From Anaerolineae bacterium (GTDB lineage Bacteria > Chloroflexota > Anaerolineae > Aggregatilineales > J027), in contig JAJTXY010000001.1 in NCBI GenBank assembly GCA_021463865.1, positions 1-64,000 on the forward strand: a DNA stretch of 64,000 nucleotides. Direction: 5' to 3'. A program made the position numbers and the translations under genes. Below, piece after piece: positions 28,822-37,032 of this stretch. Position 1 is the first letter of the stretch. Each line of letters opens with the position of its first letter. The notes below the pieces were generated by a model. The model did no database searches. It had not been told where the DNA came from and was given only the letters and a program-made list of their open reading frames with translations.

Positions 28822-31614
28822 ATGATGTTGACTGTTTTTGAGGAGATTATTGTTGCCATTAAGCCTATTTTTTATATAGATGTATTTATATCATACCACC
28901 ATAATGAGAAGAACTTAGCAGAGAAAATTTGGCTTAAGCTTAAAGAGCAAAACTACCGCGCATTTTATGATAAAGATGATATTGGTGTCAGACTTAATTA
29001 TAATCAAGAATGGGAGGAAAAAGCCTTCAGAGGTATTAAGCGATCTGCTATTTTTATCTTCATAGATAGCAAATATTCGCGGGGATCAACACCTTGTAGA
29101 ACTGAGTATAACTGTGCCGAGAAATATAAAAAGCATTTTATAGCATTAGTATGTGAATCTTTAGATGATGATGGGAATTGGGATCAGCTTAAAAAGAATA
29201 GGCTATTTTTAAAGGAAAGAGAGATTTCAGATAGCGATTTAAATGAAATTATTAAGGCAATTCACGCTAAAAGTGCATATAGAAACTTGCGAATATCATT
29301 ATTATTTATATCATTATTATTGATATTATTATTATTTTCAGCTTATCTTATTACTACAGGTCAAAAGACAAACTCGGAATTACAGAAGAGTAGATCTCTA
29401 GCAAAGGCTAATGAAGCGACAGCTATTTATTTGCAAAGAGAAGCTGAGGCACAAGCAGCTACAGCCACTTATGCTCTTGGAGAACTAGATAGACAGAGAC
29501 TTATTGCTGAAGCCAATAGAATTAGTCTACAAGGTGCTTCTGGGCAAAATGCAGATATAGCCGCTTTGTTAGCAATATACGTTCTAAATCAGGAATATAA
29601 CAGACAGGCTGATGAGGCGCTTATCCAATCTTTGGAAATTGCAACAACAAGGGAAATTTTTGAGGCAACACCGGGGCATCTTAGCGTTGCATTTGCGCCG
29701 GATATTGACGTCGCAGTTATTGGAAGCAGCGGCGGAAGAATAGAAGTCTGGCCCACTGGCAAGATTTTCCAAAATAACGGAAGTTCTATAGAATGCCTTG
29801 CTTTTTCACCGGACAATTCTTCAATTGCGATTGGAAGTAAGGACGGCTCTATTCGTATCTGGGATACGGGGAGAGTCAGCCTGTACGTTCAGATAACTAC
29901 CCTAAACAAAAGCCCAGTAAGTTCAGTCGCCTTTTCTCTTGATGGCTCCCTCATCGCCAGTGGAAGTCAAGATGGGTCTGTTCGCATTTGGGATACGAAA
30001 GGCGCCTTTGTTCGTGAATTTACTGAGAATACAAGCCCCACAAATTCAATTGCATTTTCTCCTGATGGTTCTCTCATCGTCAGTGGACATGATGACGCTT
30101 TAGTTCGTTTTTGGGATGTCCAAAATGGCAATCCAGTAGAGATTGCTTATCCATCGGAGTACGAACATAAAGAACCTGTCAGTGTCGTAGAATTCTTTGT
30201 TTCTAGTGACGGTATTGTATTCCTGTTAACTGGTAGCCAAGATGGAACAATCAGGCTTTGGAAATTAGAAAACAGTTCCATGATATTCATAAGGGAATTC
30301 GTTGGACATAATGACTGGATAACTGACGCTACATTTTCTCCTGATGGTAAGTACATTCTTTCGAGCAGTCGTGATTTAACGGTCAGACTTTGGGATACTC
30401 AAAATGGTCGAGAGATTAGAACATTCAGTGGGCATAAGGAATATGTTACTAGCATTGCATTTTCTCCTGATGGAAGGACTATTATAACTGGTAGCATTGA
30501 TGGTACTGCTCGTTCTTGGAATGTTTTCAATCAATCGCCGTTGCCTATTTATGATGGGGATGGAGAGGAATACATCAATTCAGTGGCAATATCGCCTGAC
30601 GGAAAAGAAGTCTTGACAGGTGGAACTGATTATATGGCTAGACTATGGGGAATTGACAATACAACTTCCCCAACAGAATTTAGAGGGCATAGCAATTATG
30701 TTCATACAGTGGCCTTTTCACCAAACGAAGACTTTGTGCTTACAACGAGTTGGGATAATTCCGCAATTCTATGGGACAAAAGTGGTAACCAAATATGTGA
30801 ATTCCCAAACATAAATCCGAACTATGATCCGGAACAATGGGATTCTGGTATTCAACCAGATGTTATTGGGAGTTTGTCAGATAAACACATCCTCATAATA
30901 GGTTCTATAGACAGAACAGCCACTATATATGATTATCAGTGTAAGAAAGTAAACGGCTTTAGCCTTCTTGTTGGGCATTCAGATATCATTCACGCAGTAG
31001 CCTATTCTCCTGATGGGAAATACTTCGTAACCGGGGGTCGTGATACTAACGCAATTATTTGGGATTCAGCAGGAGGAACGATCCACAAAATTTTGCATGA
31101 TCATGCAGAAGGAATTATCTCCATTGACTACTCCAAGGATGGGAACTACATTGTTACGGGGAGTGAAGATGGGACTGCCCGTCTATGGGAGACAAATACA
31201 AATAGTCTCTATGCGCGAGAAATGTATATATTTGAAGCCAATGGGGGTACAGTTACTGGCGTGGCAATCTCTGAAGATGGAAGGTATGTGGTGACAGGTC
31301 ACCAAGATGGGGTAGGACGTATTTGGGAAGGTGTGCTTGATAATCAAGGACGATTAGCTTATAACAGCCAAGACCTGTTTGATTATCACATTATAAGGCA
31401 TTTGACAGGTCATCTAAGCCCAATCACAGATGTCGCAATGTCAGATGACGGTCAAAACGTTGTTACCTCAAGTCGAGATGGAACAGCACGAAAATGGGAC
31501 ACGGATTACCGACAACTAATTAGTTCTGTTTGTAAAGAGATACTAAAAGACCAGTATCCGATATACCAAGACGACCTTCGGGACTATGGGATTAGCGAAT
31601 CCCCATGCAAGTGA
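28822..31614 (+). CDS. TIR-TM-WD40 protein: TIR domain joined to two 7-bladed propellers
   Basis: A TIR domain occupies residues ~15-150 (YIDVFISYHHNEKNLA; DKDDIG; SKYSRGSTPCRTE). Glu95 sits in the C-x-x-E position of the NAD-cleaving Glu of active TIR domains. One transmembrane helix (~158-178) and a helical linker (~185-280) follow, then 14 WD40-like repeats (FSPDGx...GSxDGxVRxWD), which would make two seven-bladed propellers. No NTPase domain is present, unlike STAND sensors. GGAG precedes ATG 28822. The gene is visibly AT-rich compared with its neighbours, which suggests transfer. Roles such as signalling or phage defence are possible but unproven. Confidence 0.88.
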   Translation: MMLTVFEEIIVAIKPIFYIDVFISYHHNEKNLAEKIWLKLKEQNYRAFYDKDDIGVRLNYNQEWEEKAFRGIKRSAIFIFIDSKYSRGSTPCRTEYNCAEKYKKHFIALVCESLDDDGNWDQLKKNRLFLKEREISDSDLNEIIKAIHAKSAYRNLRISLLFISLLLILLLFSAYLITTGQKTNSELQKSRSLAKANEATAIYLQREAEAQAATATYALGELDRQRLIAEANRISLQGASGQNADIAALLAIYVLNQEYNRQADEALIQSLEIATTREIFEATPGHLSVAFAPDIDVAVIGSSGGRIEVWPTGKIFQNNGSSIECLAFSPDNSSIAIGSKDGSIRIWDTGRVSLYVQITTLNKSPVSSVAFSLDGSLIASGSQDGSVRIWDTKGAFVREFTENTSPTNSIAFSPDGSLIVSGHDDALVRFWDVQNGNPVEIAYPSEYEHKEPVSVVEFFVSSDGIVFLLTGSQDGTIRLWKLENSSMIFIREFVGHNDWITDATFSPDGKYILSSSRDLTVRLWDTQNGREIRTFSGHKEYVTSIAFSPDGRTIITGSIDGTARSWNVFNQSPLPIYDGDGEEYINSVAISPDGKEVLTGGTDYMARLWGIDNTTSPTEFRGHSNYVHTVAFSPNEDFVLTTSWDNSAILWDKSGNQICEFPNINPNYDPEQWDSGIQPDVIGSLSDKHILIIGSIDRTATIYDYQCKKVNGFSLLVGHSDIIHAVAYSPDGKYFVTGGRDTNAIIWDSAGGTIHKILHDHAEGIISIDYSKDGNYIVTGSEDGTARLWETNTNSLYAREMYIFEANGGTVTGVAISEDGRYVVTGHQDGVGRIWEGVLDNQGRLAYNSQDLFDYHIIRHLTGHLSPITDVAMSDDGQNVVTSSRDGTARKWDTDYRQLISSVCKEILKDQYPIYQDDLRDYGISESPCK

Positions 31615-35279: not shown

Positions 35280-35306
35280 GGGCAGGATTCAATACCCTGC
35301 CTTTTT
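35280..35306 (+). terminator. terminator of 34679 gene
   Basis: GGCAGG / CCTGCC stem with a 9-base loop followed by TTTTT. It overlaps the last codons of the convergent PHP gene. Confidence 0.7.
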
Positions 35307-36422
35307 GATTGATTCGCCCCCCGTGACTCCAATTGGCGCGATATTGGGTTCGACATAAATCGGATTGCTGAGAATCCAGCAGCGTTCAATCCCCTTATAT
35401 TCACGCCAAACCTCGACGCGATAGGCCCCCGGTTGAGAGGCGACATAGGTCAGATTTTCGACATTGGTTTCATCTGCGACAACCTGCCCCCGAAAAATCA
35501 TTTTGATGTGGGTGCGGACTGGCATCAACACTTGCAAGGTAACACCATGCCCTAAACGGATGCTGTCACCCATTTGAGCGGTTGCGCCCTGTGCCCCCTG
35601 TGCCGAATATCGAAACCCTTTGGCCTCGCCGGGGATACGATAGCTCATAAATGTACTGCCCCGTGCCAATGCGCGATAAATGATGTCGGCGTCGTGTTCC
35701 ATTTCACCAATTAGGGGGTGCTGGGTCAAGATATGGGTGTTGACACAGTTAAACAAGAAATCGTAAGGGAACACAATATGGGTAATCGGGCCAATTTTCA
35801 TAGGCGTGCCGTGCGCATCAGAATTGCCGATACCCACGACCCGCTTGCCCTGTGCCAATAATTGATCCCATTTGGCGAGGGTTTCTTCGTCCGGGCCAAT
35901 AATCGCGTCTTCGGGTGAAAACAAACGCCGCACACTCTTCAGCGGGTTTTCGAGGACGGCCTTAAAAGAACTCATGTAGTTCCAGACTTCGAGACCTGTA
36001 TAACCCTCAATATCCCAATCTACCCAAGGGATGCCTTCAATATCTTCGCGCCAATCTATCCCTTTATCAAAGGGGTGGGCCAAAAAAGTCATACCACCTG
36101 CGCGATTGACCGCTTTGATAAGGGCCTGCGGGTCGGGGGCATACCGATTCATTTCGGTTTTGGCGTTGTAGACCAAGCAGTGATTGACTTGGGGCAGGCG
36201 GGTGCGGTCATGAATTTCTTGCCCGGTCAATAACAGAACGTAGCCACGTTTTTCATCGCCATAATAACCCTGTACTCCATCAATCCAAATATTGTGATCG
36301 GTTACGACCACAAAGTCGAGTTGGGTGGCAATAGCAGCATCGGCGATTTCGGAATGCCATGCTTCGCCATCGGAGTAGGGGGTGTGCATATGAAGGTTGC
36401 CAATATATTCGTGATAGGCCAT
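35289..36422 (-). CDS. PHP-domain metal-dependent phosphoesterase (CehA/McbA-like)
   Basis: A PHP catalytic domain with the metal-ligand motifs H-x-H (NLHMHTPYSD), VTDHN, HPFD and GNSDAHG, followed by a C-terminal beta-sandwich-like part (residues ~270-377). The family hydrolyses phosphodiesters or related esters; members resemble CehA. The substrate is unknown. No signal peptide is present. The start ATG 36422 lies at the left border of the candidate origin. It is separate from the PHP-AlbA protein at 41449, which shares only the PHP core. Confidence 0.85.
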   Translation of the reverse strand: MAYHEYIGNLHMHTPYSDGEAWHSEIADAAIATQLDFVVVTDHNIWIDGVQGYYGDEKRGYVLLLTGQEIHDRTRLPQVNHCLVYNAKTEMNRYAPDPQALIKAVNRAGGMTFLAHPFDKGIDWREDIEGIPWVDWDIEGYTGLEVWNYMSSFKAVLENPLKSVRRLFSPEDAIIGPDEETLAKWDQLLAQGKRVVGIGNSDAHGTPMKIGPITHIVFPYDFLFNCVNTHILTQHPLIGEMEHDADIIYRALARGSTFMSYRIPGEAKGFRYSAQGAQGATAQMGDSIRLGHGVTLQVLMPVRTHIKMIFRGQVVADETNVENLTYVASQPGAYRVEVWREYKGIERCWILSNPIYVEPNIAPIGVTGGESIKKAGY

Positions 36423-36525
36423 GTAGTCCTGAAAGTGATGGAGTTAAAAAACAAAATAAAAAAGTGCCGCTCAGAAATTGTACTGTACTTTTGATGTTCT
36501 CGGAGGTAGAGGTTTGGTAGGAAAG

Positions 36526-36909
36526 TTATCAACACCTTTTCCACTATTTTTTATTTTTAAATAGTCGTAGTAGTAGAGAAGGGGTAACCTGTTGATAACT
36601 TTTTGTTCGCCTATAACATCTCTATTAGAATGGCTTAGTGGGGCGATTTTTGATATGTTGATTGATGAATCAGCATGTTGATAACTTGTTGATAACCTGT
36701 TCATAACTTTTTGAGTTATCAACAGGTTATCAACAGTTAAGGTTTGTGTAAGAGACCGAAAAGCGAGTTATCAACAGGTTATCAACAGGTTTGAAAAAGT
36801 TATGAACAGGCAACTTCCTCAATACTTCATGATATGGCTTGTGGAAGCGGCTAAAAGTTATCAACAGATAATTTGTTCTGTTGATAACTTGTTGATAACC
36901 TGTTGATAA
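36526..36909. other. candidate replication origin: 12 perfect DnaA boxes
   Basis: Perfect TTATCAACA copies start at 36526, 36716, 36727, 36768, 36779 and 36858 on plus. On minus, copies are at 36590, 36676, 36687, 36879, 36890 and 36901. Two TTATGAACA variants are at 36698 (minus) and 36800 (plus). Many boxes are exactly 11 bp apart (36676/36687/36698, 36716/36727, 36768/36779, 36879/36890/36901), i.e. about one helical turn. Flanking AT-rich stretches lie at 36541-36570 and 36940-36970. It sits in a 610-base gene-free gap between divergently oriented neighbours. dnaA is not in the window. Confidence 0.75.
36551..36598 (-). promoter_or_regulatory. DnaA-box, GC-rich link and DnaA-trio-like tract
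   Basis: Read on the minus strand: TTATCAACA, then GGTTACCCCTTCTC, then TAC-TAC-TAC-GAC-TAT and an A/T-rich run. This matches the basal unwinding layout described for Bacillus subtilis (box, GC-rich spacer, trinucleotide repeats, AT-rich DNA). It is the only such tract I see in the box cluster. Confidence 0.55.
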
Positions 36910-36938
36910 CTCCTCTTTGGAGGTAAGTCGGAAAACTA

Positions 36939-36966
36939 CCTTAATTCTAACTTAATTCTAACATAA
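36939..36966 (+). repeat. AT-rich 11-base direct repeat
   Basis: CTTAATTCTAA occurs twice in tandem (36940-36961) next to the origin boxes. The 11-base period equals the box spacing. It could be part of the unwinding region. Confidence 0.4.
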
Positions 36967-37032
36967 GGAGGTGGTGTGTGGAAAAAGTATAGTTGAGTTA
37001 TAGTAGAAAATTATATCCCCCGAAGCGCGGTA

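What the first reader, a model, noticed from the sequence alone, without database searches (positions are those of the whole stretch)
36526..36909. Dense cluster of TTATCAACA boxes in 11-bp phase: candidate replication origin
Twelve perfect copies of TTATCAACA (6 on each strand) and two TTATGAACA variants lie within 385 bases of a gene-free gap. This is far above chance. Many copies are spaced exactly 11 bp, about one helical turn. The sequence is one base from the E. coli consensus TTATCCACA, so it is a good DnaA-box candidate. dnaA and dnaN are not nearby, unlike many bacteria, so a chromosome origin not marked by dnaA is implied; a DnaA-titrating site is the alternative.
Basis: partly seen in the sequence, partly recalled or inferred. 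Interest (0 to 1): 0.85.

Follow-up and report, generated by a model that had tools for sequence, protein, structure and literature searches.

The report
Probable replication origin far from dnaA
This stretch of bacterial DNA carries the docking sites and melting motif of a bacterial replication origin, sitting away from the gene for the initiator protein, and it probably is where this bacterium starts copying its chromosome, although strand-composition evidence in its own genus disagrees.

Summary
Boxes (125 of 126 columns) and trios (17 of 17) are invariant in the five genomes of the genus examined. Relatives carry equivalent arrays with drifted boxes (TTTTGCACA, TTTTGAACA, TTATCCACA). One sits against dnaA. 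In a closed relative the largest box cluster listed lies 845 kb from dnaA, inside the sampled skew-origin interval. So this is most likely oriC, unlinked from dnaA. Against it: in the window's own genus GC skew does not switch at the array but does switch 4-8 kb from dnaA, where no box cluster was found. A DnaA-binding control locus or an origin move therefore remains possible; marker-frequency mapping would decide. Verdict: probable new member of a known kind (oriC), with an unresolved skew conflict and an order-wide drift of box sequence and DnaA recognition helix.

The parts
36526..36909 (.). DnaA-box array: 12 TTATCAACA + 2 TTATGAACA, blocks in 11-bp phase
   Evidence: 125 of 126 box columns invariant in 5 genomes of the genus
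36590..36598 (-). BUS-anchoring DnaA box TTATCAACA
   Evidence: 1 mismatch to TTATCCACA
36577..36589 (-). 13-nt G+C-containing spacer between box and trios
   Evidence: sequence; 13 bp is the most common spacer in PMC8287927
36562..36576 (+). DnaA-trio run, 3'-GAT GAT GAT GCT GAT-5' (TAGTCGTAGTAGTAG on +)
   Evidence: sequence; 36561-36577 invariant at 17 of 17 columns in 5 genomes
36540..36562 (.). AT-rich tract (GC 0.13), probable unwinding element
36676..36706 (-). three boxes in 11-bp phase (third is TTATGAACA)
36716..36735 (+). two boxes in 11-bp phase
36768..36808 (+). two boxes in 11-bp phase plus TTATGAACA 21 bp on
36858..36866 (+). single box
36879..36909 (-). three boxes in 11-bp phase
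36526..36534 (+). outer box on the far side of the AT tract
   Evidence: present in all five genus genomes
36423..37032 (.). gene-free gap holding the array (GC 0.35)
35289..36422 (-). flanking CehA/McbA-family PHP metallohydrolase gene; its linkage to the array is kept in two genera

Best explanation
The array is the chromosome's oriC. DnaA binds the 14 boxes, whose 11-bp phase puts neighbouring protomers on the same face of the helix; from the box at 36590 it extends across the 13-nt spacer onto the single-stranded trios at 36562-36576 and melts the AT tract towards the PHP gene, where helicase is loaded. dnaA lies on another contig, so origin and initiator gene are unlinked in this lineage. 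Shown: box cluster, BUS anatomy, its conservation, its recurrence in relatives. Inferred: DnaA binding, melting, and that it is the active origin in this species.
For: Cluster unique in the assembly. BUS criteria of PMC8287927 (box with at most 2 mismatches, spacer at most 16, at least 3 NAN trios; passages) are met: 1 mismatch, 13 nt, 4 NAN trios plus one GCT. Boxes 125/126 and trios 17/17 columns invariant against 150/216 elsewhere in the array and 96/226 in the rest of the gap. Same place, upstream of the PHP gene, in 7 of 30 loci read: five of genus g1, G029 (TTATCAACA) and G028 (9 TTTTGCACA). Box+trio pattern in 39 of 154 genomes of the order, in 28 of them within 312 bp of a tandem box pair. 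In G006 the array lies directly between dnaA and a GAF gene with six trios. A gene of the same BLAST cluster as that GAF gene flanks the array in 18 of 27 loci. In G090 its only parS-like palindrome is 72 bp from the BUS. Closed genome G094: 7 boxes at 844515-844807 within the 0.62-1.00 Mb interval where both GC4 and TA4 skew turn from - to +, dnaA at position 19. In other phyla, 28 of 85 comparable loci carry dnaA within the same 8-kb or shorter locus.
Against: In the genus itself gene-strand-corrected GC skew has the same sign on both sides of the array (G000 C1 +0.118/+0.113; G027 C21 +0.082/+0.117) and turns from - to + near dnaA in three species (minimum 4.1, 4.1 and 7.2 kb from it). TA4 skew at that dnaA switch runs the opposite way to GC4, unlike G094, so this skew is not a clean replication signal, but it does not favour the array. 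No parS in the genus and no dnaN or convincing parB on the array contig (one weak parB hit on G027 C21, 130 kb away). G094 has no match to the box+trio pattern, its list showed 100 of 130 sites, and a random site falls in its 0.38-Mb interval with about 7% chance. The box+trio pattern read backwards hits 23 of 154 genomes, so single hits without an array mean little.
Confidence: 0.64

Rival explanations
1. DnaA-titrating or DnaA-regulating locus, like datA of E. coli or the DnaA-box clusters of Bacillus; the working origin lies near dnaA on C58 and uses weak boxes.
For: GC skew switches at dnaA in G000, G024 and G027 and not at the array. Many high-quality boxes away from dnaA. The 692-bp gap upstream of dnaA is AT-rich (GC 0.40) and has long conserved blocks.
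Against: A titration site has no known use for DnaA-trios, yet these are invariant and recur beside arrays in relatives. No box cluster, repeated 8-mer cluster or trio-flanked boxes near dnaA on the three dnaA contigs. In G006 the equivalent array is beside dnaA, and in G094 it lies in the skew-origin interval.
Confidence: 0.21
2. Origin switch or two initiation regions: the array is a working oriC, and the dnaA skew switch records a second or former origin.
For: Both signals exist in the same genomes. In G027 strand-corrected skew steps from +0.007 to +0.161 about 20 kb from the array, a half-switch.
Against: Array and PHP gene are linked in two genera, so the location is old and skew should have adjusted. 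Nothing shows two active origins.
Confidence: 0.1
3. Binding sites of another protein (an array-specific regulator, or iterons of an integrated replicon).
For: Box sequence changes between genera (TTATCAACA to TTTTGCACA), as for a regulator with changing specificity.
Against: Relatives in family f7 have canonical TTATCCACA in the same 11-bp arrays; trios and dnaA linkage elsewhere. The contig carries housekeeping genes such as lon and a penicillin-binding protein; no replication-protein search of the contig was made.
Confidence: 0.05

Closest known systems
Basal unwinding system (BUS) of bacterial oriC, Bacillus subtilis type (PMC8287927, part 1 of 5 and passages; PMC6669920, one passage)
   Same: DnaA box, short spacer, trios of 3'-GAT-5' type, AT tract beyond; further boxes behind
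   Different: Box is TTATCAACA; in this genome the module is not beside dnaA; chloroflex- is not found in the main text of PMC8287927
E. coli oriC
   Same: oriC away from dnaA (stated for E. coli in PMC8287927, passage)
   Different: Here there are strong trios and many near-identical boxes in 11-bp phase; E. coli scores weakly for BUS according to the same passage
datA / DARS of E. coli (abstracts in listing)
   Same: Box cluster away from dnaA
   Different: Here a BUS is attached; I recall no trios at datA
TTATCAACA arrays beside dnaA in Poribacteria, Melioribacteraceae, Lachnospiraceae and others
   Same: Same box, same 11-bp pairs, often several more boxes nearby
   Different: There dnaA is within the locus; here it is on another contig

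Membership tests
bacterial oriC | cluster of DnaA boxes in a non-coding gap | tested here: met
bacterial oriC | BUS: box (at most 2 mismatches), spacer at most 16 bp, at least 3 NAN trios | tested here: met
   1 mismatch, 13 nt, GAT GAT GAT GCT GAT
bacterial oriC | AT-rich unwinding element beside the boxes | tested here: met
   36540-36562 GC 0.13
bacterial oriC | nucleotide-skew switch at the site in this genome | tested here: not met
   GC skew keeps its sign across the array. Skew is an indirect marker, not part of oriC itself
bacterial oriC | equivalent array at the skew origin in a closed relative | tested here: inconclusive
   within a 0.38-Mb interval from 20 samples; supportive, about 7% by chance
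bacterial oriC | neighbouring origin genes (dnaA, dnaN, parB) | tested here: not met
   in this genome; met for dnaA in relative G006
bacterial oriC | replication starts here in cells | not testable with these tools
   needs marker frequency or plasmid assay
datA-like titration locus | binds DnaA but does not initiate; initiation elsewhere | tested here: inconclusive
   skew favours dnaA, anatomy favours oriC

The most novel reading that the evidence does not exclude
Across one order of Anaerolineae the initiator and its binding sites have drifted together (box middle CC, CA, GA or GC; DnaA residue matching E. coli 433 D, N, T, S, K or R) while the trio element stayed fixed, and in this genus the chromosome starts from an array unlinked from dnaA while the dnaA region still carries the skew of a second or former origin.
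Probability: 0.15. Interest if true: 0.75.

Novelty: new member of a known kind. Interest (0 to 1): 0.5.

Why it matters
It would place an oriC in a group for which my searches found no oriC paper (0 papers with anaerolineae, oriC and DnaA box; listing only). It gives a natural series in which box sequence varies widely around an almost fixed melting motif, so initiator-origin co-change can be tested. It also warns that starting genomes at dnaA, as the closed relative G094 does, can be off by hundreds of kilobases.

Tried and rejected
Contigs are unordered; no genome-wide curve for the genus was possible.

G143 (5 contigs) as a skew test: skew too weak around both array and dnaA to say anything.

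G094 176.7-kb run of three TTTTGAACA as its origin: no trio seen in the stretch printed, and skew does not switch there; the 844.5-kb cluster came later.

parS and parB as origin marks: no parS in the seven f1 genomes searched; of 20 genomes 4 had a site and only G090's is at the array. parB hits in the genus are below the family cut-off.

DnaA residue 433 against box: D in 6 of 6 f7 DnaAs with a readable helix, not D in 30 of 30 others; two fragments were unreadable and a second G136 dnaA (D; on a contig I take for contamination, not tested) was set aside. It follows family lines, so it counts as one or few events, and G143 (D) has 7 TTTTCAACA beside 2 TTATCCACA, so the match is not strict. 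The numbering is by the R-x-H motif; the E. coli motif is recalled, its positions are in a passage of PMC5043019.

GAF kinase orthologue near array or dnaA in the genus: only generic kinase matches on the contigs held.

Controls: tandem pattern read backwards hits 9 of 154 genomes against 50 forward; box+trio backwards 23 of 154 against 39.

Full report
Observation. The box count, strands and 11-bp phase are as reported. The tandem arrangement occurs nowhere else in the 4.9-Mb, 59-contig assembly. The window is the first 64 kb of a 433,895-bp contig, C1.

On the strand of the box at 36590-36598 the sequence reads TTATCAACA - GGTTACCCCTTCT - CTA CTA CTA CGA CTA - TTTAAAAATAAAAAATAG. The complementary strand is a run of DnaA-trios, 3'-GAT GAT GAT GCT GAT-5'. 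Published BUS criteria are a box with at most two mismatches, a spacer of at most 16 bp with 13 the most common, and at least three NAN trios (PMC8287927, passages seen). All are met. The next 23 bp have GC 0.13.

Conservation. In the five genomes of the genus held (the window's and four more) the array is present with near-identical geometry. Box columns are invariant at 125 of 126 and trio columns at 17 of 17, against 150 of 216 other columns inside the array and 96 of 226 in the rest of the gap; Fisher P for boxes against other array columns is 3e-14. Columns are not independent, so the P value is only indicative.

Relatives. The PHP gene next to the array was found in 45 of 61 genomes of the order; 30 of those loci were read. 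Seven have a box cluster upstream: five of the genus, G029 with eight TTATCAACA and G028 with nine TTTTGCACA. In G028 and G029 the trio run is kept (CTACTACGGCTACTA and CTACTACGACTACTAC). Across 154 genomes a tandem-box pattern hits 50 (9 by the reversed control) and a box+trio pattern hits 39 (23 by the reversed control); 28 of the 39 lie within 312 bp of a tandem pair. Boxes differ by lineage: TTATCAACA, TTATGAACA, TTTTGAACA, TTATGCACA, TTTTGCACA, and canonical TTATCCACA in family f7.

Context elsewhere. In G006 the array fills the gap between the 3' end of a full-length dnaA and a GAF-domain gene, with six trios. A neighbour of the same BLAST cluster flanks the array in 18 of 27 loci; Pfam was run on two members only: G090 shows GAF, HisKA and HATPase_c, the G006 fragment shows GAF. 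Three near-duplicate loci of the genus and one contig-end locus were left out of the 27. In G090 the single parS-like palindrome of the genome is 72 bp from the BUS. In other phyla a capped scan gave 115 loci with the tandem pair; 26 are copies of one repeat in a single assembly and 4 belong to the genomes discussed here; of the other 85, 28 contain a DnaA match. Several of those are related species, so they are not independent.

Closed genome. G094 is one 5.63-Mb contig with dnaA at position 19. From 20 samples of 20 kb, TA4 skew at fourfold sites is negative or zero in all 15 samples from 4.0 Mb round to 0.62 Mb and positive in all 5 from 1.0 to 3.2 Mb... counted by sample start: 1.0, 1.6, 2.4 and 3.2 Mb are the four positive samples and the other 16 are negative or zero; GC4 agrees broadly, with three small exceptions (140, 260, 320 kb). 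The largest cluster of box sites among the 100 listed of 130 is seven within 844515-844807; sites beyond 4.04 Mb were not listed. This fits an origin near 0.84 Mb and a terminus between 3.2 and 4.0 Mb. About 7% of random positions would fall in the interval. The box+trio pattern has no match in G094.

The contrary evidence. In the window's genus, GC skew corrected for gene strand is positive on both sides of the array in G000, and likewise in G027 once turned to the same orientation. It turns from negative to positive near dnaA, with the minimum 4.1, 4.1 and 7.2 kb from it in G000, G027 and G024, or 7.7, 5.6 and 7.2 kb by fourfold sites. The contigs of dnaA hold no box cluster. TA4 skew at this dnaA switch moves opposite to GC4, while in G094 the two move together; either the leading-strand bias differs between families or the dnaA switch is not a plain origin signal. 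In G027 the skew steps from +0.007 to +0.161 about 20 kb from the array. I could not resolve this.

DnaA. The residue after the conserved R of the recognition helix (E. coli 433 by motif) is D in 6 of 6 readable f7 proteins and N, T, S, K or R in 30 of 30 others. PMC5043019 (passages) lists positions 432-435 among the base-contacting ones and highly conserved. This links the arrays to DnaA but follows family lines, and G143 breaks a strict rule.

Mechanism. Shown: anatomy, conservation, recurrence. From established knowledge: DnaA on the BUS box extends onto trios and melts DNA (PMC8287927). Inferred: that it does so here and that replication starts here. A DnaD-domain gene next to a DnaI/DnaC-like double AAA+ gene exists in the genome and may supply helicase loading.

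Verdict. Most likely oriC unlinked from dnaA (0.64), next a DnaA-regulating locus (0.21), then an origin switch or two origins (0.10), then another protein (0.05).

Noticed in passing
G000 contig C56, L002 681-1328 and 1291-2709: A DnaD-domain protein followed, overlapping, by a 472-aa protein with two DnaI/DnaC-like AAA+ domains in one chain; secondary DnaA-family hits of this kind appear in each of the 10 family genomes (only G000's was examined). A double helicase loader would be unusual.
   Followed up: partly
L069-L170, assembly JAFYWN01 (Kiritimatiellae bacterium RGIG7486): 26 loci with the tandem TTATCAACA pair are copies of one dispersed repeat (about 75-89% alike over up to some 490 bp); two further loci are not, and one of those (L146) contains dnaA.
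   Followed up: partly
G072: Array with 11 TTTTGAACA and a BUS (L355) but no DnaA at E 1e-60; probably an assembly gap (93% complete).
   Followed up: no
G000 C58 124683-125374 (upstream of dnaA): 692-bp AT-rich gap between dnaA and a SpoVS-like gene (name by eye; NCBIfam gave no hit) with long blocks identical in five genomes and no box cluster.
   Followed up: partly
window 28822-31614 +: 930-aa protein of low GC (0.40-0.42) that reads by eye as a TIR-like head with WD40-type repeats; no family search was made.
   Followed up: no
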